64,000 nucleotides of DNA, taken from the NCBI RefSeq assembly GCF_037975245.1, contig NC_092566.1, positions 6,850,001 to 6,914,000 of the forward strand. The letters are read 5' to 3'. Position numbers and translations under genes: made by a program. The DNA is from Apostichopus japonicus. Its lineage: Eukaryota; Echinodermata; Holothuroidea; Aspidochirotida; Stichopodidae. The stretch's first letter is position 1. Every line of letters starts with the position of its first letter. The notes beneath the pieces were generated by a model. It was not told the origin of the DNA and did not search any database. It was given only the letters and a program-made list of their open reading frames with translations. Below, piece by piece: positions 7,086 through 44,502 of the stretch.

Positions 7086-8203
7086 AAGAGCTATAGAGAT
7101 AATCAGCATTCCAAATTGAGAGGGGGTAGGAGTATTCTAATGGGGGTATACGGGCTTACTTCCCACATCAACTAATTAGGACGGGCACGGAATTGATCTG
7201 GGGGGTCAAAGTGAGTTTCTGTATCCAATTTTTGCGAGCCGCAACACAACAGGATGTATACACTCTCGAAAAGATGAGAATAAATGGAAATATTGTAATA
7301 TATTGGAAACGAATGTTCAGAAAGCCCCACAGACGGGCATTGTCCATCTGCCATGTTGAAATATCCTATCACAATGCAGTAGAACCAATATTTACGAAAA
7401 CTTAAAATATACATATATAATACTCATTTCCCCCCCTCTTAAATTCTCTAATTGAGCCAAATTCATCGCTTCCCATTGAGTATATTGTAAGTGCTAAGAA
7501 GAGATATTTATTACAGTAAGGTATACACTTTATGCGGCCCCATAAAAAAAGAGTTTTGAAACCTAACAAGCCGCAAAAAATATATATAGGCCCGCGGGTC
7601 ACACTTTTGTCCACCTGTACTCTACAGTGGCATACTCCTGGCATATTAGAGCCTATATCAATCCGCCCGGATGTTCTCCTATCTCAGGAAAAGTGCCAAA
7701 AAATGCAACAGGAGAGCATTTTTTGGGGGTGGTTAATTGAGGCGATTTTTAGACCCCTCTAGGTCTCCCAGGAGCAGCGTACGAAAATTGTTATACTATA
7801 ACGAGTGAAAAGGTTGGTTTACAAGTGACAAAAACTTTAGGCCCTGATATATAGCAACAAAAAACTTCACCGTCATGATATGGGAAGTTGTTGGTGCCCT
7901 GAAAGGCCAACTTGTCAGCTATCCATGGATGGGTAGCGTTTAGCTAGTGAGAACTTCTATCTAAGACTTAGAGACCACATTACTTTTGTAATTTAATGTG
8001 TAAGTCAATGGGGCTTTCAATGAGCGTATGCTATACCCTATCCGATATAGGTCATCAACACATATGCACACTTAAAATTCGAATGATTATGAAGAAAAAA
8101 AGAGAGATGAGACCACTGTCGGTCAAACGTACGGCTGCTGATCGGTCTTGAATGGTCCATCCTGTCGACCGTTTGTCTTCTGTCCACTGTCTTTTGCCAA
8201 TAC

Positions 8204-8230
8204 CTATTTTATATGTTTCTCCTTCTGTAA
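8204..8230 (-). other. Variable 27-bp block, unit 1
   Basis: On the minus strand it follows CTCTCTTTTTCTTTAG (acceptor-like) and precedes GTATTGGC. In the only frame open in all three units it reads TEGETYKI. The sequence on both sides matches units 2 and 3 for hundreds of bases. See findings. Confidence 0.55.
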
Positions 8231-9741
8231 CTAAAGAAAAAGAGAGAGGATACAATAGGTTATATACCTGAAACAAAGTATTCCATGAGATGCCGTCTGT
8301 TGTCCGAAAATGACCTTTCAACGCCTCCATTTTCAAAAGAGGTCTAACACTTATTTTGGGTACTCCAAATAGTATAACAAGTTCGAACGTCAAAAGAGAA
8401 TTGCTTCTTGACTTGCCATGTTTAAAATGTTCTAGACAGACTTTGACATATGTTGACCCCAAATGACATTGACCTTCGACCTTTTTAGTTACGTTGTTTT
8501 TACTAGTCAAGAACATCACACAAACAATCCCCACACACATGCCAGCACTTTCGTATCGGCAACTTACCCGGAAACGACCAAAACAAGTATCATAAACAAA
8601 ACATCAGCTCACTTTTTATTTTTTATATATATATATATTTTTTTTATATAATCACTGCTTTCGAAACCAAATTACAACCCAGGTGACCGTGAGTGGTTAT
8701 CGCCTTTTTGTTCCATATATTATTCTAGGACACGATTCATTAATAAATATGTAAATATAAATTAATTGATATGATGGTGTGTATATCATGACTTTCTTCC
8801 GACTGACATTTGTTTATGCAAAAAAAAACGGTTTGGAGTAATATCAACTACGTGTCTCCGTAGTTGGTAATAGTTTCAAGTGTAAATACGTGTTTGCTGA
8901 TGAATTTCGGAAAACAAACTTCTGAAGCAGATGAAATGTTTCTTATTCTAAATTCACTCTGACCAGGTGGGTTTAATGGAGAAAAGCTGTCGCAACCGGA
9001 AGAAAGATACTTATTTTTCTGTTGCCCTTATGGCGCAAACGATTTACCGTAAAATCACTGCGACCGCCCATATCAACATGTTCATTACACAAATGTAACA
9101 AATATAAACTAGTATCGTCCACTTTTTTGAACCAATTTCACGGAGGAAACGTCTGAAAAAACCTGTTGATGCCTTGTAATGGAAGGAAATGACACAATTA
9201 CGCAAGCTACATCGGTAAGACCGAAAGAAAGATACTATTCAAGATAATGGACCTAACACAGGCTAGCCACGAAAGTGAAAGTAATTCCTAGGCTAGGCAC
9301 AACGATCGTAAACAAAACAGAGAGATTTGATTGGCGCATGATCTGTTGGGCGGGGCTGGCAAATTTTGATTGAAGTTTGTAGAATCTACGGACCTGTTAA
9401 AAAATCAGGCGAATTTTGTTCAGCTAAAAATGTTTAACGACAGATATCTCAATAAAAAATAATGAATATTAATGTGAAAATTGATTAGAACTGTGTCATT
9501 TTCACTGAGCTTTTACGGCAGTAAGCTGGACAGGTCGAAGTTAAAATTTGGCAAACACATTTTGAGACTTTATAACTTTGTGCTGCATTTTAGCAAGAAC
9601 TAGAGTGTCCCATGGACCCGGTCCTCGTGTGATTTGGCGCGAAGTGTTCCAACTTTTCAGGCTAGTTTCGATACTATAGGTGTAGGCTATGTAACGTTTT
9701 TCTATATGCCATCTATGGGACTACCGATTCACACAGAGATT

Positions 9742-10019
9742 ACAGTAACTATACTGTACATCTTAAAGTTTTGCGGTACCACAGTAAGAACTGGATCGTG
9801 CTGATAAATATGATAAATCGGTAGCATGTGCTATTAGGTTTACAGAAATAACTGAGGATATGCGTAATCCCAACAAATGCATGCATTAACCTGGATTTGT
9901 TGGGTTTACACGTATATCCTCAGTTCTAATCCTAATAGCACATGCATGCAACCGATTTATAGCACGATCCAGTTTTTTTTACTTTGGTACAAAACTTTAA
10001 GATGTACAATAGGTACTGT
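9742..10019. repeat. Foldback sequence at the end of unit 1
   Basis: Imperfect inverted repeat with arms of about 130 bp. ACTATACTGTACATCTTAAAG pairs with CTTTAAGATGTACAATAGG, and CTGAGGATATGCGTAATCCC pairs with GGGTTTACACGTATATCCTC. A TA microsatellite follows and then the next unit starts. It could be a MITE or a structural junction element. Confidence 0.7.
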
Positions 10020-10030
10020 GTTCTGTGTGT

Positions 10031-10031
10031 G

Positions 10032-10106
<75 letters not shown>
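10031..10106. repeat. TA microsatellite at the unit 1/2 junction
   Basis: Nearly continuous TA between the foldback and the next unit; equivalents at 21511-21585 and 33685-33773. Confidence 0.95.
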
Positions 10107-10110
<4 letters not shown>

Positions 10111-10685
10111 AAACACATAGATCCGCCCCTGGCCCAGTGGATCCTTAAATGATCCTTAAATATTGTCATTGTTTTAGTGCTGCAAATTGTAACCAACTTA
10201 CGATAAGAAAAACGTGAAATTTCAATACATGAAATAAAAGCGTATATATAGTTACAGTTAATTGATATTGAATATCGTAAAAGATACAAACTTACGTTGG
10301 GTGCAATCGGTTACGACGACCAATAACAAGATAGCGAACACGTACAACTTCATCGTGATTTGCTTCAAAATGAAATGTTTTTCTGTTGTGCAATTGACGC
10401 TTGTCTCTCTCAGATCTGAATTCGAATATTTTCTCTCAGTATATATATATGGTGATACATCTTATAATATAAGGTGCGTCGTGACTCTCGATAGATAATA
10501 CCGTGCTTACGTCACTGTTAACAGGAAGACACCAACACCTGAAGGTGATATCGGCACGAGAAATAGTTTTTTTTTTTAGATTATATTAAATGAATCATAA
10601 CATGATATAAATGTTGTAACAAGTAACGTCAGCGGTGCAGGAAGGAGGGCCAGTGGATGATAACTCCAGTGGATGATAACGTGGA

Positions 10686-10946
10686 GTGTTAGCTCAGTGG
10701 TTAACGCCGGTGGCTTTCAATCATAAGGTTCCCGGTTTGAATCACTCCAATATTAATGTATGTCGTCCAGATACAAAGTTGTTGACACTTGACAATTCAT
10801 AATTATGGACGTTAAATATGAATCTAAGAGACTGACTTCGGTCAGCTTGCGGCTTCGATAAGCCGATGAGGCTTCTTCGCGAGTTCCTGCTTGCAGGAGG
10901 ATCTAAAATACATACATACATACATACATACAAATACATACAACTC
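10686..10946 (+). mobile_element. tRNA-derived SINE, array unit 2
   Basis: Same head, body and tail as the copy at 480, with a longer ATAC tail. The position within the unit is identical, so this copy was inherited through duplication of the unit. Confidence 0.85.
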
Positions 10947-12138
10947 AGCTTAGCAGCACAGCGTTGATCATGACTGCAACAAAGTTTGTATCGTCTGAGA
11001 TTTCAACTGCCAAAAAAGAACTCCCCATTTTTACTCATACAACTATCCTCCGCCACTCTTCGGTTGATAACAATGTGGAACTCACATTGAAGAGAGAAAA
11101 TATCCACGCAGCTAGTTACCCCCCCCCCTCCCCTCCCCCTCCCCTGCCCCATCTCAATATTTTGCCTCTTTAAACTTGAGATATGGTTGATTGCGTGCAA
11201 CATATTTTAACTGGCTAAACCTTTATCTACTCCAGGAAGTGGTATTACAGTATAGGGGACTGTGATGTCATCTGGGCAAATTCACTTCAAGACCTTTATT
11301 TAGGCTTTTTGATTTCTCGAAATGGAAAACTATGGAGTCACTCTTATACTGACCTTCAAAATTGCAAAAAGTCGGCAATGAATATAGCGCGGATCGCAAA
11401 GTTCGTAAATTACGATTACGATTTTGTGTGTGTCCAGGACGGCAGCATACAGAAACGTTGCACTCCTCACTCAAAGCCGAAGCCAAAGTGAATTAATCAG
11501 GTCACACATCATCCGTATAGTCTATGCTTGCTAAGTTTTGCAATACCGCTCTCAATTCCTTTCGGTGGAAACATTTCATACTGTATAGTTTTGATATAAT
11601 GTGGCTCTTCTTGATTTGTGCTTGAAACCGATTACATTTGGAACGTTTGTATGGTTACTGTCAACGTGATCTGTATATAAGTAAATGCATAACGGAAACC
11701 GTCTGGGAAATTTTAAAGAATGGAAACTAGAGATAAGAAATTAATGGCTAGAACGGGATTCAGAACCAGTGGCCTCTCGACAAAAAAATCATAAAAACAA
11801 AAAACAATAATATATAGTGTTGAAGTGAAATGAAGTGAAGGCTTGCACAATACTTTCGCTTGTTAGAGATGAAGTCTGCATGAAGAACGAGTTGCTCAGG
11901 AGGGAGCAGATCCGCCCTCTTTGATGAAGATATACCATAGTCCAGTCTCATGAAAATTTTGACAAACTGGCGACGTCCTTAGCTGCAGTGCAGGGGTGAT
12001 CAGATCTTCTTCTGTTCCCCCCCTCACCGCCCCACCCCCCCCCCCCCCCGCCTACTGCCCCGTTCAATCACTCCTCGCGTCATCAGTTTTCGCATGTATG
12101 GAGAAGCAAATGCCTCACTGAAGGGTTGAAGACCGGAC

Positions 12139-12355
12139 GTATGAAAAGCCATTTTAACATTTATTCGGGAATTTTAGATATCTTAAATTGTTTCTTATTT
12201 CAGATATCTAAAATTCTATTTCAGATATCTCGAGTTAAATTTAAGATATCTCGAACTTAATTTAAGATATCTGAAATAGAATTTTAGATATCTGAAATAA
12301 GAAACAATTTAAGATATCTAAAATTCCCGAATAAATGTTAAAATGGCTTCCATAC
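12139..12355. mobile_element. 217-bp GATATC palindromic element, unit 2
   Basis: Same length, same GGAC flanks and same position in the unit as the 1896 copy, so it was inserted before the array amplified. Confidence 0.8.
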
Positions 12356-13822
12356 GGACGGCGATCCTCACTTGGATCAGCAGGCATGTCGAAGCGGCTG
12401 ACCAGGTTATGGCCGCTAATACACGGAAACAGCTATACTTGGAGCCACAGGTGAGAAGTGAGTGTCAGGTGGAGACCAAAGTTGCATAAATACTCCAAGA
12501 AATAAAGAGCACGATGAGTTCTCCAGTCAGAGGTGCCTACCCCTCCATTACAGCCAAGTACATACCCTATATGTATGTTGCACTATTAGATTGTAAAGTT
12601 TGCTTGGTATTGGGGTGTGGGTGGGGTGTGGTGGGTATTGGCAGTTTGACATGCATGGAACAAGACCTTCCATTCTTGCATGAACATCGTCAGACTACCT
12701 GTTATTTAGATTTTATCTTTCTGCATATGAAAAGATTTTTATCCAAAAATTGTGAAGTGCAATATAATGAATTAGCTAACACATTAATGTTATACACTCA
12801 GCTAACACTTTGAGTTATTACGAAAGGGTTTTTTCTTCATAAATTCGACATTGAAGCAATGAATAGGTAGAGCAATACTTAATTCATATATAATATTAAT
12901 TAATATATCATAAAAAAATACAAACAAAATATGTTCAAGGGGGGTCGCCCCCTTAGCCCCCCCCCTCTAGGCTACGCGCCTGGGGAGGGGGACACTTTGA
13001 AGTCGCCTGTGAGGAACTGTTCCTAAGAATAACAAGGATTGTAATCGAATATCAACAGAAAAGTGAGAATCCGAGTGAAGAGGGTAAAGTAAACTACTCC
13101 AATATGACCATTCACATGTGGTTTCTGTTCTAAGTACTGGACAATGTTTATATGTCTTTTCCTCTAAAAACGATACCAATAAAAAGATTTCCGTAGTGTG
13201 CAATACATCAACAAGATGAAAAAAAAACCACTTAACCTTTAAGAAATAATAACTTCAATGGCTATGCCATTATCTAAACAAATTGGGGACAATGATTCGT
13301 TTATATATAAATTTAATAAAGTAAGTGTATATCAGGAAAAATTGATTGATATTTCCATCTTTCTCGTATTGTTTTCGAAGGGAGAGGGGGTTCAAGAAAC
13401 TTGGACTGGGGTGTCTACCCTTATCCCTCCTACGCTGGTGGCCACCGTGACAGTGGGTTTTGAACACAAGATCCCTGGTATAAAGGTCTAAATACAGGTG
13501 CACTATACTTCCGCAATAATATTACATAGAGACACGAACAGGAATTTGTATTAATTGTTTGCATGATTATAATTTTTATTATCCAGAAGATAAAATTAAT
13601 CATGTTATATTACTTGATTGAATTCTGAACAATTGAAGAAAGGAGTGTTAAAAAAGGAAAACAAAAAACCTCGTATAAAAAGTAGCCTACATACAGAGTT
13701 GATATCTATTTTCTATACCTCGGAAACGTACTATGTATAGAAATGGTGTAGATTTCTTTTGAAGAACGCCCTCATCCCTGTCGAAGTTTGGTATTCGATA
13801 CAAAATATGTTATATATTTACG

Positions 13823-13873
<51 letters not shown>

Positions 13874-14084
13874 CGAGTAAACGGGAATGAAAAGTTTGTA
13901 CTAACGGCCTGATCAAAGACGGGGATTACAAATTTAATACTTATAACGAAAGATGTCTGACTATCTACTTACAAACAGGACTTTTAAGAAAGAAACATTT
14001 CATTTTCTGTACCAATTTTTTTTTTTATATAGAAAACTTCGTATTTGACCACAAACAAAACAACAACTACTTAATCTTAAATCT

Positions 14085-14204
14085 TCAGTAGGACCCATAA
14101 TTTTCCAACATAAAACTGTCTTCATTCAGTTTAAGGTTCAACTCGTTAATTAACGTGTGCATCAGGTCCTTTAAAGATGGTTTGTCGTCTTCTGTTGGTT
14201 GAGC
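14085..14204 (-). CDS. Putative terminal coding exon, unit 2
   Basis: Same as the 3911 copy with an identical translation and the same acceptor. Confidence 0.5.
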   Translation of the reverse strand, partial: AQPTEDDKPSLKDLMHTLINELNLKLNEDSFMLENYGSY

Positions 14205-15166
14205 CTACATTGAAATCAAAAAGAAGAGAAAGAAAAAGAGAAGGTAAGGCAAAATATGAAAGGAAAAATATATATAATAATATAAAATTCCCCGCTCCCG
14301 TTGTTTGACATGTATGTTACTTATACGGTGGCCTTTCAATTAACACTGATGTTGTGCAACTACAAGATTATATCATAACAACCCCATGATGAGAAAGCAA
14401 ATGGCTGTGGCGTCCCGGGTACAATTTTTGTTGTTGACGATTTCATTTTTTGTATATAGAATACATAATTTATTCATTCCATATTTCCCCGGGATATGTG
14501 GCTGTAGCCCCCCTACCCCCTCCCCCCGTCTCATCAAGCCTGGAGACATATCATTTAAGTGTCCATAAAGAAATATCTTCCATTTTAAAATTGCAGTTAT
14601 ATCAGCAAACAGTCCACAAGCTTCTTCAAATGAAAGTTTAGAATATGCTCTGTTTTGATCCAGGTGTCGCTTGACACAAAGTACACCCCTAAGTTTACAC
14701 CACTTAAGTTACACCCATAAGTTTACACCCCTTAGTACACCCCTCAGTTTAGAAAAACAATAAAAGAACTAATAAGTCGTCTATCTATAAAGAGGTTCCT
14801 ATAGAAAGATTGAGGTGGATTCGGAAGGATCTGTAAGTGAAACACTAATTGAGAAGGAAAAAAAACGTTAATGTTTTAAGAATCCCAACAAACTTTCACG
14901 TCGAGGCTTAATTTTAAAGCAAACATTTTAAGGCGCGAAAGTTTGGGTAGTGTATTTTGACAGTAAGTAGAGCTTAAATAATTCAGAATTTTGTTTTTTC
15001 GCAAATGTAAGAAATTGGGCCAATTTTCCACCAAAAGTTAGCCCAGGGAAAGTGTCAACGTTGGGTGCTAGTAATCAATTCTTTACTTTTACATATATAT
15101 GAGACAATCTTTCGATAACACCGAGTACTAAATCTTGTTATATTGTCTTGTGAACGATGATTGTTC

Positions 15167-15323
15167 CACCCAAGCCGAAAAGGTGTGAGCTTATATTTGT
15201 TCTTTACGTGTAGCATATTATGCATTTATATGCCAGGGTGTTATAACACACTAACACGTGTTATGTTTTGGGAGCATGCGAGAGCTAGATATGTTAAAGA
15301 TACAATACAGTAAATCGTAGTGG

Positions 15324-15367
<44 letters not shown>

Positions 15368-15559
15368 ATGATATAAAATATTTTTTTATTTTTTATATTT
15401 TTTTTATATTTTTATATATATATTTTTTAACACAGGCCGCAATAAAATGTGCCTCTAGCATAACACGTGTTATCATGTTATAACACAGATGCATATAAAT
15501 GCGCAATATATTCAAGTCGAAAACGCTATTATAAGCAACTATACAATTCGGTTCGGGTG
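15167..15559. mobile_element. MITE, unit 2 copy of the 4992 element
   Basis: Same ends and target duplication as in unit 1; slightly shorter because of TA/T-run length changes. Confidence 0.87.
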
Positions 15560-16745
15560 ATTGTTCTAAACGTTAACGATTTGCCAGTCCATTCCAATTG
15601 TCCTTTTGTCTTATACCTAACTTTGCTTATACTGGCAAAGTATTCATAATATATCAGTCACTTTACTTTCACTAATGTGGTTTTCTCTCTGCCATTTCTG
15701 CAATTTGGAGGATCGGTGATTATATGACGTCATTTTTAACTTGTAGTTTCTTAAATGTAAGAAGTTGCTTTCGTTCTAGTTAAAATGAGTGTAAAACTAT
15801 AGAAAAGAATGACTCAACGTGTATAAATCACGCATAGGCCATAAAACCATGTGCTTTTCTCTTCCTCGCCATGTGAATCGTGCTTTCACCACAGCATCCA
15901 TCCGTGGCTATTCGTGTAACTGACGCGATTTCAATATTGTTTGATTTTCATCATATTGAAATAATACTCATTTCCCCCCCTCTTAAATTCTCTAATTGAG
16001 CCAAATTCATCGCTTCCCATTGAGTATATTGTAAGTGCTAAGAAGAGATATTTATTACAGTAAGGTATACACTTTATGCGGCCCCATAAAAAAAGAGTTT
16101 TGAAACCTAACAAGCCGCAAAAAATATATATAGGCCCGCGGGTCACACTTTTGTCCACCTGTACTCTACAGTGGCATACTCCTGGCATATAAGAGCCTAT
16201 ATCAATCCGCCCGGATGTTCTCCTATCTCAGGAAAAGTGCCTAAAAATGCAACAGGAGAGCATTTTTTGGGGGTGGTTAATTGAGGCGATTTTAGACCCC
16301 TCTAGGTCTCCCAGGAGCAGCGTACGAAAATTGTTATACTATAACGAGTGAAAAGGTTGGTTTACAAGTGACAAAAACTTTAGGCCCTGATATATAGCAA
16401 CAAAAAACTTCACCGTCATGATATGGGAAGTTGTTGGTGCCCTGAAAGGCCAACTTGTCAGCTATCCATGGATGGGTAGCGTTTAGCTAGTGAGAACTTC
16501 TATCTAGACTTAGAGACCACATTACTTTTGTAATTTAATGTGTAAGTCAATGGGGCTTTCAATGAGCGTATGCTATACCCTATCCGATATAGGTCATCAA
16601 CACATATGCACACTTAAAATTCGAATGATTATGAAGAAAAAAAGAGAGATGAGACCACTGTCGGTCAAACGTACGGTTGCTGATCGGTCTTGAATGGTCC
16701 ATCCTGTCGACCGTTTGTCTTCTCTCCACTGTCTTTTGCCAATAC

Positions 16746-16772
16746 CTGAATAATGTGGGGGGTTTTTTATAC
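16746..16772 (-). other. Variable 27-bp block, unit 2
   Basis: Same boundaries, different content: the same frame reads IKNPPHYS and includes A6 and C6 runs. Confidence 0.55.
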
Positions 16773-17396
16773 CTAAAGAAAAAGAGAGAGAGGATACAAT
16801 AGGTTATATACCTGAAACAAAGTATTCTATGAGATGCCGTCTGTTGTCCGAAAATGACCTTTCAACGCCTCCGTTTTCAAAAGAGGTCTAACACTTATTT
16901 TGGGTACCGTACTCCACATAGTATAACAAGTTCGAACGTCAAAAGAGAATTGCTTCTTGACTTGCCATGTTTAAAATGTTCTAGACAGACTTTGACATAT
17001 GTTGACCCCAAATGACATTGACCTTCGACCTTTTTAGTTACGTTGTTTTTACTAGTCAAGAACATCACACAAACAATCCCCACACACATGCCAGCACTTT
17101 CGTACCGGCAACTTACCCGGAAACGACCAAAACAAGTATCATAAACAAACATCAGCTCACATTTTATTTTATATATATATATATATATTTTATATAATCA
17201 CTGCTTTTGAAACCAAATTACAACCCAGGTGACCGTGAGTGATTATCGCCTTTTTGTTCAGTATATATTATTCTAGGACACGATTCATTAATAAATATGT
17301 AAATATAAATTAATTAATATGATGGTGGGTATATCATGACTTTCTTCTGACTGACATTTGTTTATGCAAAAAAAAAACGGTTTGGAGTAATATCAA

Positions 17397-17672
17397 CTAC
17401 GTGTCTCCGTAGTTGGTAATAGTTTCAAGTCTAAATACGTGTTTGCTGATGAATTTCGGAAAACAAACTTCTGAAGCAGATGCAATATTACTTATTCTAA
17501 ATGCACTCTGACCAGGTGGGTTTAATGGAGAAAAGCTGTCGAAACCGGAAGGAAGATACTTATTTTTTCTGTTGCCCTTATGGCGCAAACGATTTACCGT
17601 AAAATCACCGCGACCGCCCATATCAACATGTTCATTACACAAATGTAACAAATATAAACTAGTATCGTCCAC
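17397..17672 (-). CDS. 91-codon ORF, unit 2 only (unassigned)
   Basis: Begins MDDTSLYLLHLCNEHVDMGG and ends HVFRLETITNYGDT. Units 1 and 3 have one fewer A in an A-run and lose this frame, and unit 3 has a further deletion. Either a decaying gene piece or chance; a GTAAAT donor after GGTGATTTTACG could truncate it as an exon. Confidence 0.22.
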   Translation of the reverse strand: MDDTSLYLLHLCNEHVDMGGRGDFTVNRLRHKGNRKNKYLPSGFDSFSPLNPPGQSAFRISNIASASEVCFPKFISKHVFRLETITNYGDT

Positions 17673-18246
17673 TTTTTTGAACCAATTTCACGGAGGAAAC
17701 GTCTGAAAAAAACCTGTTGATGCCTTGTAATGGAAGGAAATGACACAATTACGCAAGCTACATCGGTAAGACCGAAAGAAAGATACTATTCAAGATAATG
17801 GACGGTTGGACCTAACACAGGCTAGCCACGAAAGTGAAAGTAATTCCTAGGCTAGGCACAACGGTCGTAAACAAAACAGAGAGATTTGATTCGCGCATGA
17901 TCTGTTGGGCGGGGTTGGCAAATTTTGATTGAAGTTTGTAGAATCTGGCGAATTTTATTCAGCTAAAAATGTTTAACTACAGATATCTCAATAAAAAATA
18001 ATGAATATTAATGTGAAAATTGATTAGAACTGTGTCATTTTCACTGAGCTTTTACGGCAGTAAGCTGGAAAGGTCGAAGTTAAAATTTGGAAAACACACT
18101 TTGAGACTTTATAACTTTGTGCTGCATTTTAGCAAGAACTAGAGTGCCCCAATGGACCTGGTCCTCGTGTGATTTGGCGCGAAGTGTTCCAACTTTTCAG
18201 GCTAGTTTCGATACTATAGGTGTAGGCTATGTAACGTTTTTCTATA

Positions 18247-19717
18247 CCCAGCAAAAAATGTACCCTAATTTTACCGCGGTAAACTATGGTAAATGTGTGG
18301 TAAATGGGGTAAATGTGTGGTAAAATTGTGGTAAAATAAACTGCGGTACATTTACCGCAGTTTTACCATGGTATTACCGCGGTAAAAGTAGGGTAAAAGT
18401 GCGGTACATTTACTGCGGTAAATTTACCGCAGTTTTACCATGGTATTACCGCGGTAAAAGTGCGGTACATTTACTACGGTAAATTTACCACAGTTTTACC
18501 ATGGTATTACCGCGGTAAAAGTGCGGTACATTTACTACGGTAAATTTACCATGGTATTACCGCGGTAAAAGTAGGGTAAATGTGTGGTACATTTACTACG
18601 GTAAATTTACCGCAGTTTTACCATGGTAGTATACCGCGGTAAAAGTAGGGTAAAAGTGTGGTACATTTACTACGGTAAATTTACCATAGCTTTACCATGA
18701 TATTACTGGAGTAATTAAGTAGGGTAAATTTATATGGTACATAAACTACATAGGTGAAATTCCTACAATTGTGCCATGATTAACCACAGTAAAATTAGGG
18801 TAAAACTATACAGTGCAATTATACTATGGTAAATTTACCATAATTGTACCATGATTTTACCACAGTAGAACATATATGGGTCACACTATAAAACATGATG
18901 GTACATTTACAGCAATTTTTGCATGATTTTGTCCCATATTTTTGCAATACTGATAAGACAAACCTTTTGCCAGCTTATGTTCTACTCATATCTTAATGTT
19001 GGCAATATAAATTACCTGTGGATATGAGTTGAATTAAGAAGAGAGACCAACTGCTATTCTTATATGTTATAGTATGCATCTCTTTTCCTAAAAAAAAAAG
19101 CAGTAGATATATACATAGAGAATTCCTTCATGTAATCCCTGATAAATTTGAGAGGAGACAACATTTAATTCTTTTTTCATCATGAGGGAGAACCTAAAAG
19201 CCTTTAAAATGAAAAAAAGAACTATATAAACTAGCACACATAAGGCATAGCTTCTGTGCCTCAACACTGAACACACAAAAATTGACCAATCAGTGTCCTC
19301 AGATTTGGGTATTCTCTGTCAGGTCCATTAAATGACATGACAAGTCTATGTGTCGACACTGACACCAATTTTCACCCCGCTCCTTTCTCGTGGTAGGAAA
19401 GTGGCTACACGTGGAAAGCGGTACTCACGTCCTTCGGAGGGGACGTTAAATTGCGGTCCCGGGAGCAGGACTACACACCCCTGCCTCGTTACTTCAGGGC
19501 ACTATTCGAAAAGAGAAGGCGAGTTTCGCCGGTGTCCTTCCACGCACAAAAACTTGGAACCTCAATAATTTCCGACTAAGGATTTCCTTAGTCTGCTGAA
19601 GCACCTTCGGGTGGAAGCGTAATACGAGGTGTATCATATCATCATCATCTACAGAGTAGAGCGGTGAGGTGGCAGAACGGGAGAGAGAGGCGAAATTCGC
19701 CGGTGTCCTTCCACGCA

Positions 19718-19752
<35 letters not shown>

Positions 19753-21186
19753 ATGGAGCCTCAATAATTACCGACTAAGGATTTCCTTAGTTTGCTGAAG
19801 CACCTTCGGGTGGAAGCAGAACACGAGGTGTATCGTATCGTATCGTATCTACAGAGTCTGCAGTACCTGAGGTCCCTGGTTCAAACCTCGGTGTCGACAC
19901 TGACACCAATTTTCACCCCGCTCCTTTCTCGTGGTAGGAAAGTGGCTACACGTGGAAAGCGGTACTCACGTCCTTCGGAGGGGACGTTAAATTGCGGTCC
20001 CGGGAGCAGGACTACACACCCCTGCCTCGTTACTTCAGGGCACTATTCGAAAAGAGAAGGCGAGTTTCGCCGGTGTCCTTCCACGCACAAAAACTTGGAA
20101 CCTCAATAATTTCCGACTAAGGATTTCCTTAGTCTGCTGAAGCACCTTCGGGTGGAAGCGTAATACGAGGTGTATCATATCATATCATATCTACAGAGTA
20201 CTCTCTTCATTTAAACAAAGTTTTTGAGGACAATTGGAGATCAAAAGTCCAATCTGGACTACCAGTTAAGTCTAAAGAAGATAGTCAGGAATCATACCAG
20301 CTAGGGTTATTGAAATTCAACAAAGCTTTCTCATGTGTGAAACCTCCATGGAATTGATGAATTAAAAACTGTTGCATGCTACAACTGTGGACTTACATGT
20401 CAGGCATACACCCATTACAATAAGGGTAAAGGCATATAGCCAAATTATGACACAATACACTAATGGGTGAAATTCAAAGAAATTTATGGTGTACATGCTG
20501 ATTGAAATTAGGACAAAATTTTGCTCAATGTGAGGTAAAACTGTCCTACAATTAGTGTAAAATCCTGGTAAACTGACGTAAAACTAAGGTAAAAGCGTAG
20601 TAAATCTACGGTAAAACAATGGTAAAATTGTGGTAAAAGAATGGTAAAGCGTGGTAAAAGTATGGTAAATTGAGGTAAAACTAAGGAAAAAGCGTGGTAA
20701 ATATACGGTAAAATTGGGGTAAAAGAACGGTAAAACTGTGGTAAATTTAGAGTAAAAGTGTGGTAAATCTACGGTAAAACCATGGTAACCTTGGGGTAAA
20801 ACCATGGTACACTGTGGTAAAAGCATGGTAAAAGTATGGTAAATTGAGGTAAAACTAAGGAAGAGCGTGGTAAATATGCGGTAAAATTGGGGTAAAAGAA
20901 CGGTAAAACTGTGGTAAATTTGGGGTAAAAGCGTGGTAAAAGTGTAGTAAAAGTGTGGTAAAAGTATGGTAACAGCGTGGTAAATTGCGGTAAAATTGGG
21001 GTAAAAGCGAGGTAAAACTATGGTAAATTTGTGGTAATTTACTGCGGTAAACCACGGTTTACCGTGTCCATAGGGCCAAAACACCGCGGTAATGTACAAC
21101 AAATTTACCGCGGTTTTACCCCGGTTTTACCGTGGTAAAATTGTGGTATGTTACCGCGGTAAATTTGAGGTAAATTTTTTCCTGGG
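18247..21186. mobile_element. 2.94-kb TA-flanked element with GGTAAA palindrome arrays, unit 2 only
   Basis: The terminal inverted repeats read CCCAGCAAAAAATGTACC and, at the other end reversed, CCCAGGAAAAAATTTACC. TA is duplicated at 18245-18246 and 21187-21188; units 1 and 3 keep the unoccupied CTATATGCC. The outer 600-700 bp on each side are degenerate repeats of TTTACCGCGGTAAA, including five 56-72-bp repeats at 18360-18680. The long minus ORF at 20584-21102 (repeated F-Y/T-LLP) is a by-product of that repeat. The interior holds another SINE-like repeat (19350-20200). No transposase is seen, so it is non-autonomous. TA targets suit Tc1/mariner or related DDE elements, but the family is not established. 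Confidence 0.85.
19350..20200 (+). repeat. Tandem SINE-like repeats inside the 2.94-kb element
   Basis: Two near-identical ~290-bp copies (19350-19640 and about 19890-20190) with a partial third between them (19667-19850, containing a 31-base A run). The common sequence includes GTCGACACTGACACC, CTTCCACGCACAAAAACTTG, TTCCGACTAAGGATTTCC and a tail of ATCAT or CGTAT repeats. CTGGTTCAAACCTCGG near 19880 resembles a tRNA B box, so a second SINE family is likely. Confidence 0.6.
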
Positions 21187-21223
21187 TATGCCATCTATGG
21201 GACTACCGATTCACATAGAGATT

Positions 21224-21494
21224 GCAGTAACTATACTGTACATCTTAAAATTTTGCGGTACCACAGTAAGAACTGGATCGTGCTGATAAATATGATAAAT
21301 CGGTAGCATGTGCTATTAGGTTACAGTAATAACTGAGGATATGCGTAATCCCAACAAATGCATGCATCAACCTGGATTTGTTGGGTTTACACGTATATCC
21401 TCAGTTCTAATCCTAATAGCACATGCTACCGATTTTAGCACGATCCAGTTTTTTTACTTTGGTACAAAACTTTCAGATGTACAATATGTAGGCT
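21224..21494. repeat. Foldback sequence at the end of unit 2
   Basis: Same sequence as at 9742, directly after the 2.94-kb insertion, followed by a TA microsatellite. Confidence 0.7.
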
Positions 21495-21505
21495 ACTGTG
21501 TTCTG

Positions 21506-21510
<5 letters not shown>

Positions 21511-21582
<72 letters not shown>

Positions 21583-21585
21583 ATA
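21511..21585. repeat. TA microsatellite at the unit 2/3 junction
   Basis: TA tract with one TTTA interruption, between the foldback and the start of unit 3. Confidence 0.95.
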
Positions 21586-22162
21586 GGATTCACTGGACCA
21601 GGAGCAGATATATATATAAATAGATATAGTGGATCCTTAAATGATCCTTAAATATTGTCATTGTTTTAGTGCTGCAAATTGTAACCAAATTACGATAAGA
21701 AAAAGGTGAATTTTCAATACATGAAATGAAAGCGTATATATAGTAGCAGAATGTTGATATTGAATATCGTAAAAGATACAAACTTACATTCATGGGTGCA
21801 ATCGGTTACGACGACCAATAACAAGATAGCGAACACGTACAACTTCATCGTGATCTGCTTCAAAATGAAATCTTTTTCGGTTGTGCAATTGACGCTAGTC
21901 CTTCTCAGATCTGAATTGGAATATTTTCTCTCAGTATATAAATATATCGTGATACATCTTATTATATAAGGTGCGTCGTGACTCTCGATAGATAATACCG
22001 TGCTTACGTCACTGTTAACAGGAAGACACCAACACCTGAAGGTGATATCGGCACGAGAAATAATTTCTTTAGATTATATTAAATGAATCATAACATGATA
22101 TAAATGTTGTAACAAGTAACGTTAGCGGTACATGAAGGAGTGCCAGTGGATGATAACGCGGA

Positions 22163-24185: not shown

Positions 24186-24415
24186 ACTCAGCTTAGCAGC
24201 ACAGCGTTGATCATAACTGCAACAAAGTTTGTATCGTCTGAGATTTCAACTGCCAAAAAAGAATTCCCCATTCTACTCATACAACTATGCTCCGCCACTC
24301 TTCGGTTGATAACAATGTGGAACTCACATTGAAGAGAGAAAATATCCACGCTGCTGGTTACCCCCCCCCCCCTCCCCTCCCCCATCTCAATATCTTGCCT
24401 CTTTAAACTTGAGAT

Positions 24416-24753
24416 GTAATGTAAATAAAATCTTATATAGCGCACTACGCGCGATGCATCTATGCGCTTTACAAACAATCTAGAAAATACAATGCCATAA
24501 AAAAATAAATAGAAAAACAGTAAATACATATACCATCTACAGAAATATACAGGAATATGAGATCGAAAACTATTTAAGGTACTGGTGAAGCGTAAAGCGA
24601 TAAAACAGATTGACTACAAAATCTACAATTTGAATGCTAAAAAGTGATAATTCCAATTGAAGTTAGAACCTAAAAACCAACACGACAGAACAATATAAAA
24701 CAGATAAAAACAGGAATATGAGATCGAAAAACTACTAAAAGCACTGGTCAGAT
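24416..24753. mobile_element. ~340-bp insertion, unit 3
   Basis: Present only in unit 3 between TTGAGAT and ATGGTTG; AGAT or GAT is repeated at both ends. It contains TATATAGCGCACTACGCGC and GCGCTTTACA, words common in dispersed repeats of marine invertebrates, and an internal repeat of AGGAATATGAGATCGAAAA. Class unknown. Confidence 0.65.
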
Positions 24754-24857
24754 ATGGTTGATTGAGTGCAACATTGTTTAACTGGCTAAACCTTTATCTA
24801 CTCCAAGATGTGGATCACAGTAGAGGGAGTGTAGCCTAATGTCATCTGGGCAAATGC

Positions 24858-25155
24858 CAAGGGCGTAGGAACCGGGGGGCTGGGGGCGCCAGCCCCCCCC
24901 CCAGCGAAAAATATAGGGGACGGAAGTATCATTCCGCCCCCACCCCCCGCTTCGCAAGTCAGAAAACCCCTTTTCATTTCTCAATAAATGATAGAGTGTG
25001 AAGTGCGCTATACTGCACCAAATTGCATCTGAGGCCACCTGGAAATGCAAAAAAAATCCAAAGGGGAGGGGGACACCCCCTCCCATTAAACCCCTCCCTC
25101 AGGCCGGCCATCAGTGTTCAGTCCCCCCACTCAAAAGTACCTTCCTACGCCACTG
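24858..25155. mobile_element. 298-bp hAT-type MITE, unit 3
   Basis: The 8-bp duplication GCAAATGC lies at 24850-24857 and 25156-25163, and unit 1 has the single copy. The ends read CAAGGGCGTAGGAA and, reversed, CAGTGGCGTAGGAA, matching the CAGNGGCGTAG consensus of hAT termini. The interior is G/C-homopolymer-rich with no coding capacity. Confidence 0.88.
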
Positions 25156-25987
25156 GCAAATGCACTTCAAGACATTTATTTAGGTTTTCGGGTTTCTCGA
25201 AATGGAAAACTATAGAGTCACACTTACTGACCTTCAAAATTGCAAAGTCGGCATTGACTATAGCGCGGATCGCAAAGTCGTTAATTACGGTTACGATTTT
25301 TCTTTGTCCAACACGGCAGCATACAGAAACGTTGCACTCCTCACTCAAAGCCGAAGCCAAAGTGAATTAATCAGGTCACACATCATCCGTATAGTCTATG
25401 CTTGCTAAGTTCTGCAATACCGCTCTCATTCCCTCTCGAGGAAAACATTTCATACCGTATAGTTTTGATATAATGTGGCTCTTCTTGATTTGTGCTTGAA
25501 ACCGATTACATTTGGAACGTTTGCATGGTTACTGTCAACGTGATCTGTATATAAGTAAATGCATAACGGAAACCGTCTGGGAAATTTTAAAGAATGGAAA
25601 CTAGAGTAAAGAAATTAATGGCTAGAACGGGATTCAGAACCAGTGGCCTCTTGACAAACAAACTCATAAAAAACTATAATATATAGTGTTGAAGTGAAGT
25701 GAAGGCTTGCACAATACTTTCGTTTGTTAGAGATGAAGTCTGTATGAAGAACGAGTTGCTCAGGAGGGAGAAGACCCGCCCTCTTTGATGTAGATATACC
25801 ATAGTCCAGTCTCATGAAAACTTTGACAAAACTGGCGACGTCCTTAGCTGCAGTGCAGGGGTGATCAGATCTTCTTCTGTTCCCCCTGCCCCCCCCCCCG
25901 CCTACTGCCCCGTTCAATCACTCCTCGCGTCATCAGTTTTCGCATGTATGGAGAAGCAATGCCTCACTGAAGGGTTGAAGACCGGAC

Positions 25988-26204
25988 GTATGAAAAGCCA
26001 TTTTAACATTTATTCGGGAATTTTAGATATCTTAAATTGTTTCTTATTTCAGATATCTAAAATTCTATTTCAGATATCTCGAGTTAAATTTAAGATATCT
26101 CGAACTTAATTTAAGATATCTGAAATAGAATTTTAGATATCTGAAATAAGAAACAATTTAAGATATCTAAAATTCCCGAATAAATGTTAAAATGGCTTTC
26201 ATAC
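25988..26204. mobile_element. 217-bp GATATC palindromic element, unit 3
   Basis: Identical in layout to the other copies, with GGAC on both sides. Confidence 0.8.
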
Positions 26205-27675
26205 GGACGGCGATCCTCACTTGGATCAGCCGGCATGTCGAAGCGGCTGACCAGGTTATGGCCGCTAATACACGGAAACAGCTATACTTGGAGCCACAGG
26301 TGAAAAGTGAGTGTCAGGTGGAGACCAAAGCTGCATAAATACTCCAAGAACTAAAGAGCACGATGAGTTCTCCAGTCAGAGGTGCCTACCCCTCCATTAC
26401 AGCCAAGTACATACCCTATATGTATGTTGCACTATTAGATTGTAAAGTTTGCTTGGTATTGGGGTGTGGGTGGGGTGTGGTGGGTATTGGCAGTTTGACA
26501 TGCATGGAATAAGACCTTCCATTCTTGCATGAACATCGTCAGACTACCTGTTATTTAGATTTTATCTTTCTGCATATGAAAAGATTTTTATCCAAAAATG
26601 TGAAGTGCAATATAATGAATTAGCTAACACATTTAATGTTATACACTCAGCTAACACTTTGAGTTATTACGAAAGGGTTTTTTCTTCATAAATTCGACAT
26701 TGAAGCAATGAATAGGTAGAGCAATACTTAATTCATATATAATATTAATTAATATATCATAAAAAAAATACAAACAAAATATGCTCAAGGGGGGGGGTCG
26801 CCCCCTTAGCCCCCCCCCCTCTAGGCTACGCGCCTGGGGAGGGGGACACTTTGAAGTCGCCTGTGAGGAACTGTTCCTAAGAATAACAAGGATTGTAATC
26901 GAATATCAACAGAAAGGTGAGAATCCGAGTGAAGAGGGTAAAGTAAACTACTCCAATATGACCATTCACATGTGGTTTCTGTTTTAAGTACTGGACAATG
27001 TTTATATGTCTTTTACTCTAAAAACGATACCCATAAAAAGATTTCCGTAGTGTGCAATACATCAACAAGATGGAAAAAACACTAAACCTTTAAGAAATAA
27101 TAACTTCAATGGCTATGCCATTATCTAAACAAATTGGGGACAATGATTCGTTTATATATAAATTTAATAAAGTAAGTGTATATCAGGAAAAATTGATTGA
27201 TATTTCCATCTTTCTCGTATTGTTTTCGAAGGGGGAGGGGGTTCAAGAAACTTGGACTGGGGTTTCTACCCTTATCCCTCCTACGCTGGTGGCCACCGTG
27301 ACAGTGGGTTTTGAACACAAGATCCCTGGTATAAAGGTCTAAATAGAGGTGCACTATACTTCCGCAATAGTATTACATAGAGACACGAACACGAATTTGT
27401 ATTAATTGTTTGCATGATTATAATTTTTATTATCCAGAATGTAAAATTAATCATATGTTATATTACTTGATTGAATTCTGAACAATTGAAGAAAGGAGTG
27501 TTAAAAAAGGAAAACAAAAAACCTCGTATAAAAAGTAGCCTACATACAGAGTTGATATCTATTTTCTATACCTCGGAAACGTACTATGTATAGAAATGGT
27601 GTAGATTTCTTTTGAAGAACGCCCTCATCCCTGTCGAAGTTTGGTATTCGATACAAAATATGTTATATATTTACG

Positions 27676-27718
<43 letters not shown>

Positions 27719-27928
27719 CGAGTAAACGGGAATGAAAAGTTTGTACTAACGGCCTGATCAAAGACGGGGATTACAAATTTAATACTTATAACGAAAGATG
27801 TCTGACTATCTACTTACAAACAGGACTTTTAAGAAAGTAACATTTCATTTTCTGCACCAATTTTTTTTTTTAATTATAGAAAACTTCTTATTTGACCACA
27901 AACAAAACAACTACTTAATCTTAAATCT

Positions 27929-28048
27929 TCAGTAGGACCCATAATTTTCCAACATAAAACTGTCTTCATTCAGTTGAAGGTTCAACTCGTTAATTAACGT
28001 GTGCATCAGGTCCTTTAAAGATGGTTTGTCGTCTTCTGTTGGTTGAGC
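27929..28048 (-). CDS. Putative terminal coding exon, unit 3
   Basis: Same length and frame; one residue differs (NLKLNE becomes NLQLNE) and the acceptor is CAATATAG instead of CAATGTAG. Confidence 0.48.
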   Translation of the reverse strand, partial: AQPTEDDKPSLKDLMHTLINELNLQLNEDSFMLENYGSY

Positions 28049-29802
28049 CTATATTGAAATCAAAAAGAAGAGAAAGAAAAAGAGAAGGTAAGGCAAAATA
28101 TGAAAGTAAAAATATATATAATAATATAAAATTCCCCGCTCCCGTTGTTTGACATGTATGTTACTTATACGGTGGCCTTTCAATCAACACTGATGTTGTG
28201 CAACTACAAGATTATATCATAACAACCCCATGATGAGAAAGCAAATGGCTGTGGCGTCCCGGGTACAATTTTTTGTTGTTGACGATTTCATTTTCTGTAT
28301 ATAGAATACATAATTTATTCATTCCATATTTCCCCGGGATATGTGGCTGTAGCTCCCCTCCCCCTCCCCCCGTCTCATCAAGCCTGGAGACATATCATTT
28401 AAGTGTCCATAAAGAAATATCTTCCATTTTAAAATTGCAGTTATATCAGCAAACAGTCCACAAGCTTCCTCAAATGAAAGTTTACAATATGCTCTGTTTT
28501 GATCCAGGTGTCGCTTGACACAAAGTACACCCCTAAGTTTACACCACTTAAGTTACACCTATTAGTTTACACCCCTTAGTACACCCGTCAGTTTAGATAA
28601 ACAATAAAAGAACTAATAAGTCGTCTATCTATAAAGAGGTTCCTATAGAAAGATTGAGGTGGATTCGGAAGGATCTGTAAGTGAAACACTAATTGAGAAA
28701 AAAAAAACGTGAATGTTTTAAGAATCCCAACAAACTTTCACGTCGAGGCTTAATTTTAAAGCAAACATTTTAAGGCGCGAAAGTTTGGGTTATGTATTTT
28801 GACAGTAAGTATAGAGCTTAAATAAGTCAGAACTTTGTTTTTTCGCAAATGTCAGAAACTGGGCCAATTTTCCACCAAAAGTTAGCCCAAGGAAAGTGTC
28901 AACGTTTGGTGCTAGTAATCAATTCTTTACTTTTACATATATATGAGACAATCTTTCGATAACACCGAGTACTAAATCTTGTTATTGTCTTGTGAACGAC
29001 GATCGTTCTAAACGCTAACGATTTGCTGCAGTCTATTCCAATTGTCCCCTTGTCTTACATAACTTTGCTTATACTGGCAAAGTATTCATAATATATCAGT
29101 CACTTTACTTTCACTAATGTGGTTTTCTCTCTGCCATTTCTGCAATTTGGAGGATCGGTGATTATATGACGTCATTTTTAACTTGTAGTTTCTTAAATAT
29201 AAGAAGTTGCTTTCGTTCTAGTTGAAATGAGTGTAAAACTATAGAAAAGAATGACTCAACGTGTATAAATCACGCATAGGCCATAAAACCATGTGCTTTT
29301 CTCTTCCTCGCCATGTGAATCGTGCTTTCACCACAGCATCCATCCGTGGCTATCCGTGTAACTGACGCGATTTCAATATGATTTTATTTTCATCATATTG
29401 AATGATAGTTTTAAGTAAAACGCGTGCACAAAGTCCTTAAGGGATTTTATGGTGGGGGGGGGGGGGGAGTGAGGGGGGATTTTACATAGGTTAGAAACGG
29501 AATACGTGTTTTTAGACTTTTGGGATTAATCTGTTGACCATATTAATGCCCTGGCTGATAATTCTGAAGGGGTCAAAGGAAAGTCAAGAAATATCCGGGT
29601 AAGATAGATACCTGTGTTCATACTCATGTGCGTCGTCGGAGCAAATGAGTTTGAGTCTAAGGCTCTGATGACTGTAAAGAATAGAAACTTGCACACTGAA
29701 GCAGAAATTCGCTTCATTAAAAAACGACTAACCTTTGAGGGGATTCGTTCCAAAATTCTAACTTTTCGTCAATTTACAACCTCATATATACTAAGTTATA
29801 TA

Positions 29803-29810
29803 TACTAAGT

Positions 29811-29873
<63 letters not shown>
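29803..29873. repeat. TA microsatellite beside the Penelope-like remnant, unit 3
   Basis: TA tract that truncates the remnant at its downstream side; shorter in unit 1 (6188-6222). Confidence 0.93.
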
Positions 29874-29875
<2 letters not shown>

Positions 29876-30217
29876 TTGTTTGCCCATTGCGACAATAGAA
29901 AAACCTGTTTCTGGCTTGATGACAATATCATTGCGCTTCCGGAGTTCTTTGATAGCCTGTCTCTCAGTTATGCTGAGATTGTCGAGGAAGTCAGGGGCAT
30001 AGGTATGTGTGTTTTTACATCAGATGGGAAAATATTCCTCTTCAATTGCGGAATTATATGATTCAAGAGGCGCACAATGGCCCTTGGTCGGATTCCACGA
30101 GCTTTTTGGACCCAATGAAAATGAATGAAGAACACATTTACGACTACTGTGGGTCAAACTTACGATTAAAGGTTCTTCAGGAGCCCTTTCTTCTAAGCGG
30201 TTGAATCTCGACCGCAC
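29876..30217 (-). pseudogene. Penelope-like reverse transcriptase remnant, unit 3
   Basis: Same region as 6225-6580: LTHSSRKCVLHSFSLGPKSS, then in a shifted frame LSITERQAIKELRKRNDIVI and KPETGFSIVAMG. The usual KPADKG has become KPETG. Unit 2 lacks this block entirely. Confidence 0.58.
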
Positions 30218-31869
30218 ATATCTTGGAAACTACAAATAATAGAGATATAGAGTTAATGTTCATTCAAATGGAGAGGACAAACGAGTATACCTTATTTGCA
30301 ATACAGACTGAATCGCTCAAATCAACTGATCAGAGTGATCAGATCCTTGAGCTGAATTGGGGTGGAAAATTGGCCCAGTTTCTACATTTGTGGAAAACAG
30401 TTCTGATTAATTAACGTTTTCTCAATTAGTGTTCCACTTACAGAGCCCCTTCCCGAAATCAGCCTCAGTCTTTCTACAGGACCTTCTCTAGAGTGACAAA
30501 AGTATATAGTTCTTTGATTTCTTTTCTAAACTTAGGGGTGTATACTTTGTGTCAAACGACACCTGCATGGAACCAAGCAGAGCATATAATTGGAAACTTT
30601 CAACTGAAACAGCGTGTTGAATATTTGCTGCTTAATTGCGATTTTAAAATGGAAGATATTTCTTTAGTGACTTTTTAAAGATATGATCAGTGTATCAATG
30701 TATTCCCACTAGGCACACATATCTTGGACACTAGAATTTAATAGAGCTATAGATAATCAGCATTCCAAATTTTGAGGGGGTAGGAGTATTCTAATGGGAG
30801 TATACGGGCTTACTTCCCATATCAACTAATCAGGGCGGGCACGGAATTGATCTGGGGGTAGGGGGGGGGGGTCAAAGTGAGCTTTTGTATCCAATTTTAT
30901 GCGGGCCGCAACATTTAAGGATGTATACACTCTCGAAAAGATGAGAATAAATGGAAATATTGTAATATATTGGAAACGAATGTTCAGAAAGCCCCACAGA
31001 CGGGCATTGTCCATCTGCCAAGTTGAAATATCCTATCACAATGCAGTAGAACCAATATTTACGAAAACTTAAAATATACATAAATAATACTCATTTTCCC
31101 CTTCTTAAATTCTCTAATTGAGCCAAATTCATCGCTTCCCATTGAGTATATTGTAAGTGCTAAGAAGAGATATTTATTACAGTAAGGTATACACTTTATG
31201 CGGCCCCATAAAAAAAGAGTTTTGAAACCTAACAAGCCGCAAAAAATATATAGGCCCGCGGGTGACACTTTTGTCCACCTGTATACTCTACAGTGGCATA
31301 CTCCTGGCATATTAGAGCCTATATCAATCCGCCCGGATGTTCTCCTATCTCAGGAAAAGTGCCAAAAATGCAACAGGAGAGCATTTTTTTTGGGGGGGGG
31401 GTGATTAATTGAGGCGATTTTAGACCCCTTTAGGTCTCCCATGGAGCAGCGTACGAAAATTGTTATACTATACCGAGTGAAAAGGTTTGTTTCAAGTGAC
31501 GAAAAATGTAGGCCCTGACAGCAAAAAAAAAATTCACCGTCATGATATGGGAAATTGTTGGTGCCATGAAAGGCCAACTTGTCAGCTATCCATGGATGGG
31601 TAGCGTTTAGCTAGTGAGAACTTCTATCAAGACTTAGAGACCACATTACTTTTGTGATTTAATGTGTAAGTCAATGGGGCTTTCAATGAGCGTATGCTAT
31701 ACCCTATCCGATATAGGTCATCAACACATATGCACACTTAAAATTCGAATGATTATGAAGAAAAAAAGAGAGATGAGACCACTGTCGGTCAAACGTACTG
31801 CCGATGATCGGTCTTGAGTGGTCCATCCTGTCGCCCGTTTGTCTTCTCTCCACTGTCTTTTGCCAATAC

Positions 31870-31893
31870 CTATATAAGCTGTTTTATGTTTAC
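31870..31893 (-). other. Variable 24-bp block, unit 3
   Basis: Same boundaries, one codon shorter: the same frame reads KHKTAYI. Confidence 0.55.
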
Positions 31894-32290
31894 CTAAAGA
31901 AAAAGAGAGAGGATACAATAGGTTATATACCTGAAACAAAGTATTCTATGAGATGCCGTCTGTTGTCCGAAAATGACCTTTCAACGCCTCCGTTTTCAAA
32001 AGAGGTCTAACACTTATTTTGGGTACCGTACTCCACATAGTATAACAAGTTCGAACGTCAAAAGAGAATTGCTTCTTGACTTGCCATGTTTAAAATGTTC
32101 TAGACAGACTTTGACATATGTTGACCCCAAATGACATTGACCTTCGACCTTTTTAGTTACGTTGTTTTTACTAGTCAAGAACATCACACAAACAATCCCC
32201 ACACACATGCCAGCACTTTCGTACCGGCAACTTACCCGGAAACGACCAAAACAAGTATCATAAACAAACATCAGCTCACTTTTTATTTTA

Positions 32291-32322
<32 letters not shown>

Positions 32323-33403: not shown

Positions 33404-33675
33404 ACAGTAACTATACCGTACATCTTAAAGTTTTGCGGTACCACAGTAAGAACTGGATCGTGCTGATAAATATGATAAATCGGTAGCATGTGCTATTAGG
33501 TTTACAGTAATAACTGAGGATATGCGTAATCCCAACAAATGCATGCATCAACCTGGATTTGTTGGGTTTACACGTATATCCTCAGTTCTAATCCTAATAG
33601 CACACGCTACCGATTTATAGCACGATCCAGTTTTTTTCTTTGGTACAAAACTTTAAGATGTACAATAGGTACTGT
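33404..33675. repeat. Foldback sequence at the end of unit 3
   Basis: Same arrangement as in units 1 and 2: foldback, long TA tract, next unit. Confidence 0.7.
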
Positions 33676-33684
33676 GTTCTGTGT

Positions 33685-33707
33685 ATATATATATATATAT
33701 ATATATA

Positions 33708-33773
<66 letters not shown>
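33685..33773. repeat. TA microsatellite at the unit 3/4 junction
   Basis: Long TA tract with one AAATAT interruption. Confidence 0.95.

Positions 33774-33779
<6 letters not shown>

Positions 33780-44228: not shown

Positions 44229-44502
<274 letters not shown>

What the first reader, a model, noticed from the sequence alone, without database searches (positions are those of the whole stretch)
8204..31893. Variable 24-27-bp cassette between splice-like signals in matching repeats
At 8204-8230, 16746-16772 and 31870-31893 the three units carry unrelated short blocks, while the sequence on both sides matches. On the minus strand each block follows the same strong acceptor-like CTCTCTTTTTCTTTAG and precedes GTATTGGC. 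Lengths are multiples of three (27, 27, 24), and exactly one frame is open in all three (TEGETYKI, IKNPPHYS, KHKTAYI). This would fit a diversifying micro-exon in a tandemly amplified gene, or a hotspot of replacement mutations.
Basis: partly seen in the sequence, partly recalled or inferred. Interest (0 to 1): 0.8.

Follow-up and report, generated by a model that had tools for sequence, protein, structure and literature searches.

The report
Hypervariable sea cucumber muscle-peptide genes
The odd short blocks are the coding core of a secreted amidated peptide made by a small tandem gene family, very probably of a sea cucumber and very probably the genes behind a muscle-active peptide isolated in the 1990s; the copies' peptides differ almost completely although the DNA on both sides is nearly identical.

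Summary
Confirmed: three units of a ~10-kb tandem array carry unrelated 27/27/24-nt blocks between nearly identical flanks. The blocks are coding, but not micro-exons. On the minus strand each unit holds a two-exon gene. Exon 1 encodes a signal peptide (MKLYVFAILLLVVVTDCT) and ends in phase 1. Exon 2 starts with the block and runs through the supposed donor: [block]-GIGKR-QWxEDKR-...-stop. The three precursors (77, 78, 76 aa) are intact. GKR is an amidation plus dibasic cleavage site. Copy C predicts KR|KHKTAYIGI-amide. [quoted passage not shown] its precursor was reported as not found in 2012 and is not in the 2019 precursor table I read. Assembly size points to that species. The end of exon 1, 2-5 kb away, varies too, so variability follows the mature peptide, not the exon. 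In this core each changed codon is nonsynonymous. Copy relationships switch within 36 bp of the block (A/B close on one side, B/C on the other), as gene conversion would leave. Most likely: a single-locus peptide family under diversifying selection, with conversion homogenising the flanks. No transcript data were available.

The parts
10296..10353 (-). Copy A exon 1 CDS: signal peptide MKLYVFAILLLVVVTDCT plus variable end CAA C, phase 1, donor GTAAGT
8231..10295 (-). Copy A intron, 2065 bp (acceptor CTCTCTTTTTCTTTAG at 8231-8246)
8055..8230 (-). Copy A exon 2 CDS incl. stop; precursor 77 aa with TEGETYKI-GIGKR-QWTEDKR
8204..8230 (-). Copy A hypervariable block (peptide core)
7992..7997 (-). 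ATTAAA polyadenylation-like signal 57 nt after the stop; same offset in B and C
21788..21848 (-). Copy B exon 1 CDS, variable end CAT GAA T (3 nt longer)
16773..21787 (-). Copy B intron, 5015 bp, with an insert of about 3 kb
16597..16772 (-). Copy B exon 2 CDS incl. stop; precursor 78 aa with IKNPPHYS-GIGKR-QWREDKR
16746..16772 (-). Copy B hypervariable block; no second place in the assembly found within 3 mismatches
33960..34017 (-). Copy C exon 1 CDS, variable end AAA C
31894..33959 (-). Copy C intron, 2066 bp
31721..31893 (-). Copy C exon 2 CDS incl. stop; precursor 76 aa; KR|KHKTAYIGI|GKR matches KIamide-9 (KHKTAYTGIamide) at 8 of 9 residues
31870..31893 (-). Copy C hypervariable block
36..102 (-). 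Copy 0 exon 1 CDS (MKLYVLYVFATLLLVVVTGCTQ, in-frame 9-nt duplication); its exon 2 would fall in 2500 unreadable bases (N) just left of the window

Best explanation
[quoted passage not shown] Each gene has two coding exons: signal peptide, then variable core + GI-G-KR + QW(T/R)ED-KR + tail. The signal peptide is removed, the core is cut at GKR (in copy C also after a KR whose Arg codon the intron splits) and the glycine makes the amide. Predicted products: a peptide ending LTEGETYKIGI-amide (A), a peptide ending CIKNPPHYSGI-amide (B), KHKTAYIGI-amide (C). Shown from sequence: open frames, matching phases, processing sites, block divergence, mosaic ancestry. Shown by literature plus sequence: a peptide one residue from the product of copy C was isolated from the animal and acts on muscle. 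Inferred: species, splicing, expression of A and B, and the cause of the divergence, namely diversifying selection on the mature peptide while gene conversion homogenises the flanks and stops at the mismatched block. The shared Y-x(1-2)-GI-amide end suggests a fixed receptor-binding end with changing N-terminal parts (inference).
For: Exon 1 ends in phase 1 in all three copies; exon 2 is open in the matching frame in all three, and in no other frame in A and C; in B one other frame is also open over the 150 bases checked. GKR and KR sites are the same in 3 of 3. KIamide-9 = KHKTAYTGIamide, from A. japonicus body wall, inhibits electrically induced contraction of longitudinal muscle and contracts intestine; copy C matches 8 of 9 residues and both ends. 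In the core the changed codons are all nonsynonymous: 10 of 10 compared codons A-B, 7 of 9 A-C (2 same), 9 of 9 B-C; alignment and gaps set by hand. In the intron next to the block B and C differ at 1 of 409 sites; on the other side A and B differ at 5 of 739 and A and C at 20. The best switch point, among 65 variable sites, is 8168-8182, reached by 0 of 2000 permutations. Copy 0 supports A+B on the 3' side: 4 sites for, 0 for either alternative.
Against: No transcript or peptide from this individual was seen. The match to KIamide-9 has one difference (Ile for Thr); no readable copy gives the exact peptide. Copies A and B have no dibasic site before the core, so their N-terminus depends on signal cleavage. 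Only three full copies, too few for a codon-model test. Outside the core, exon 2 shows 2-4 nonsynonymous and 0-2 synonymous changes per pair, no clear excess. A donor further downstream in exon 2 (e.g. at GTACGT) cannot be excluded. The upstream scan showed only TATATAT/TATATAA strings inside TA-rich sequence, so no clear promoter.
Confidence: 0.87

Rival explanations
1. Diversifying micro-exon of 24-27 nt.
For: Good acceptor, lengths multiple of three, AG before GT in all three.
Against: GGTATTGGC encodes the Gly-Ile-Gly needed for a GI-amide peptide, as in KIamide-9; the frame stays open to a shared stop 49 codons on; the exon 1 end varies as well.
Confidence: 0.05
2. Same gene, but the block is replaced as a cassette from donor sequences or by a targeted hypermutation process, rather than kept different by selection.
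For: B and C differ at 11 of 24 block columns plus a 3-nt gap while 409 adjacent intron sites differ once; point mutation alone in that time is implausible.
Against: No donor for block B within 3 mismatches; block C gives itself and two 3-mismatch hits, with 7 hits for the reversed control; block A's search did not complete. The exon 1 end varies too. Flank conversion explains the contrast without a special process.
Confidence: 0.15
3. Pseudogene array or chance open frames: neutral decay with a local indel hotspot.
For: Open frame in the blocks alone is not rare by chance; copy 0 has a changed signal peptide.
Against: Three intact precursors with identical signal peptides and processing sites, and a real peptide matching copy C at 8 of 9 residues.
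Confidence: 0.03
4. Secreted defence or recognition peptides rather than hormones or neuropeptides (antimicrobial, pheromone-like). This is a rival on function only and can hold together with the best explanation of the gene.
For: Hypervariable mature region with conserved signal peptide is typical of defence peptides (general knowledge; such papers appear in the listing).
Against: KIamide-9 is myoactive; the predicted cores differ in charge (two Glu in A, mostly basic in C).
Confidence: 0.2

Closest known systems
KIamide-9 (KHKTAYTGIamide) of Apostichopus japonicus
   Same: Copy C product: 8 of 9 residues, start after KR, GI-amide end; same species by assembly size
   Different: Ile for Thr at position 7; copies A and B make unrelated cores. 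Original isolation papers not seen, only Table 1 of PMC3432112
Other single-peptide precursors of A. japonicus (GLRFA, GN19, stichopin)
   Same: Short precursor (62, 82, 39 residues) with signal peptide and two coding exons (parts of PMC6586643)
   Different: No tandem hypervariable family described in the parts read; GLRFA and GLRFA-like genes on one scaffold, and GLRFA against GLLGL between two species, are the nearest parallel
Conotoxin and amphibian skin peptide genes
   Same: Conserved signal peptide and hypervariable mature peptide (search listings only; rest recalled)
   Different: No cysteine framework as in conotoxins; short amidated linear peptide; only 3-4 copies
Micro-exon genes (schistosome type)
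   Same: Short variable coding segment (recalled)
   Different: Exon 2 CDS is 173-176 nt incl. stop, not a micro-exon

Membership tests
Amidated secreted peptide precursor | N-terminal signal peptide | tested here: met
   By eye only, (hydrophobic MKLYVFAILLLVVVTDC); no signal-peptide program was run
Amidated secreted peptide precursor | Dibasic cleavage sites and amidation glycine | tested here: met
   GKR and KR in 3 of 3 full copies
Amidated secreted peptide precursor | Mature peptide found in tissue | tested here: inconclusive
   KIamide-9 differs by one residue from copy C; nothing for A and B
Known family in Pfam | Profile match | tested here: not met
   Copy A precursor: 0 families at E 0.1; B and C not scanned
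Micro-exon gene | Coding exon of a few to ~36 nt with functional donor | tested here: not met
   Coding continues through GTATTGGC; no RNA available
Conotoxin-type toxin gene | Cysteine-rich mature peptide with conserved framework | tested here: not met
   0-1 cysteine in the core
Neuropeptide | Expression in neurons, cognate receptor | not testable with these tools
   No expression data

The most novel reading that the evidence does not exclude
A muscle-acting signalling peptide family evolves like a toxin or recognition ligand: the receptor-facing GI-amide end is fixed, the N-terminal part is replaced wholesale between near-identical tandem copies, and gene conversion keeps renewing the flanks but stops at the heterologous block, so the array keeps several different peptides and individuals may carry different repertoires.
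Probability: 0.4. Interest if true: 0.8.

Novelty: new variant of a known kind. Interest (0 to 1): 0.62.

Why it matters
It would give a gene to a bioactive peptide whose precursor was searched for and not found, show that this peptide is one of several from one locus, and offer a compact test of how selection and gene conversion shape a peptide hormone family. Signalling peptides are usually conserved (general knowledge); here the coding core is the most divergent spot of a 10-kb repeat.

Tried and rejected
A second divergent spot near 10110-10140 / 21575-21620 / 33770-33800 is the edge of a TA microsatellite inside the intron and was set aside. Donor-cassette idea: block B has no other place within 3 mismatches, block C only chance-level ones; block A was asked seven times and never answered. 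Paralogs elsewhere: exon 1 DNA gives 4 places, exon 2 protein 3, the combined protein 7 in the array plus one at E 0.8 with a stop on contig C15, taken as chance and not inspected. tblastn over 264 kb around the array gave only the array copies and hits at E 0.5 or worse. The exon 2 DNA search did not complete. Rfam: nothing at the gathering score in the window. tRNAs: none. Paper searches for six letter strings of the precursors found nothing; for KHKTAY one paper. A paper search on selection, duplication and sea cucumber neuropeptides listed 5 papers, none on point by title.
Full report
Observation. They sit in a tandem array of roughly 10-kb units, copies A, B and C; a fourth unit (copy 0) runs off the left end. 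Similarity to the unit ends about 10 kb left of the window, and 2500 bases there, right beside the window, read N where exon 2 of copy 0 should be. In the assembly, exon 1 DNA is found 4 times and the exon 2 protein 3 times, all here; a combined protein query gives those 7 places plus one at E 0.8 with a stop. Block differences are 15 of 27, 10 of 24 and 11 of 24 columns against 1.1-2.6% in the 400 bp on each side.

Gene model. On the minus strand, exon 1 encodes MKLYVFAILLLVVVTDCT, identical in DNA in A, B and C, followed by CAAC, CATGAAT or AAAC and a GTAAGT donor. It ends in phase 1 in all three. The acceptor CTCTCTTTTTCTTTAG precedes the block. In the required frame exon 2 reads TEGETYKI, IKNPPHYS or KHKTAYI, then GIGKRQW(T/R)EDKR(S/A)TGWT(I/T)QDRS...HMC-stop. 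An ATTAAA lies 57 nt after the stop in all three. The split codon at the junction is Leu, Cys or Arg, so the variable region spans the intron.

Why not a micro-exon. The supposed donor GTATTGGC belongs to GGT ATT GGC = Gly-Ile-Gly. With the KR that follows this is a standard amidation and cleavage signal (general knowledge). KIamide-9 ends in GI-amide.

Link to a known peptide. From the predicted KR|KHKTAYIGI|GKR I recalled KHKTAYTGIamide; a paper search found it in one paper, PMC3432112. Of that paper I read passages and parts 1 and 5 of 6 of section 3. Its Table 1 lists KIamide-9 among peptides isolated from A. [quoted passage not shown] the text says no precursor was found by BLAST of the transcriptome. 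In PMC6586643 (2019; outline, first parts of sections 39 and 47, passages) KIamide-9 is not among the section headings or in the precursor table, and the word KIamide and the fragments I tried do not occur in the main text; its figures and supplements were not seen. So 'precursor not in print' rests and on this open-access library only. The one-residue difference may be an allele (ATA/ACA), the unreadable copy, or another population (inference).

Species. The assembly has 671,581,487 bases in 35 contigs. PMC10344927 (passages) gives 671.60 Mb for A. japonicus (671,627,515 bases in its tables), 34 scaffolds and chromosomes of 18.21-46.02 Mb; the contig here is 18.96 Mb. Size fits to 0.01%, not to the base, and the scaffold number is off by one. 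This is inference from size, strengthened by the peptide.

Why the core diverges. Codon by codon (11 positions with exon 1 end and split codon, gaps placed by hand) the core shows 10, 7 and 9 nonsynonymous and no synonymous differences for A-B, A-C and B-C; 0, 2 and 0 codons are the same and 1, 2 and 2 are gaps. The relation of the copies changes at the block: on its 3' side A and B differ at 5 of 739 sites and C stands apart (20 and 23); on its intron side B and C differ at 1 of 409 and A stands apart (6 and 7). The best single switch among 65 variable sites at 7.4-9.7 kb is between 8168 and 8182, in exon 2, 22-36 bp from the block (0 of 2000 permutations reach it; Fisher p 3e-5 for the two flanks, which were chosen after seeing the data). 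Further along the intron the pattern changes again (a run of B-specific sites at 8934-9003), so conversion is not confined to the block. Copy 0 confirms A+B on the 3' side by 4 sites to 0. Since B and C could hardly gain 11 differences in 24 bases while 409 intron sites next to them gained one, the block must be older than its flanks or have been exchanged separately. The simplest account: conversion renews flanks, is stopped by or selected against across the heterologous core, and selection favours different peptides. This last step is inference.

Product end. The ends YKIGI, YSGI, YIGI and the published YTGI share Tyr and GI-amide, consistent with a conserved active end (inference from four sequences).

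Limits. No RNA, no population data, three full copies, no signal-peptide program, and copy counts from searches that score only the best candidates.

Noticed in passing
window 60094-60441 (-): ORF with an interferon regulatory factor DNA-binding domain match (Pfam PF00605, E 4.8e-13).
   Followed up: no
window 39090-39407 (-): ORF with a GIY-YIG nuclease domain (E 1.1e-4), perhaps from a Penelope-like element (recalled).
   Followed up: no
window 44231-44501: About 90 copies of TGA at 99% match.
   Followed up: no
window 18247-21186: Insert with two minisatellites (GGTAAAAGTGT- and TTTACCGCGGT-like units), found only in the intron of copy B, which makes that intron about 3 kb longer.
   Followed up: partly
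window 480-724, 10683-10944, 47013-47257, 61931-62179: Dispersed ~245-bp repeat that looks tRNA-derived (SINE-like) by eye; ARAGORN called no tRNA.
   Followed up: no
window 36-102 (-): Copy 0 signal peptide carries an in-frame 9-nt duplication and two amino-acid changes.
   Followed up: partly
window 8934-9003: Run of six sites where copy B alone differs, a further sign of patchy conversion in the intron.
   Followed up: no
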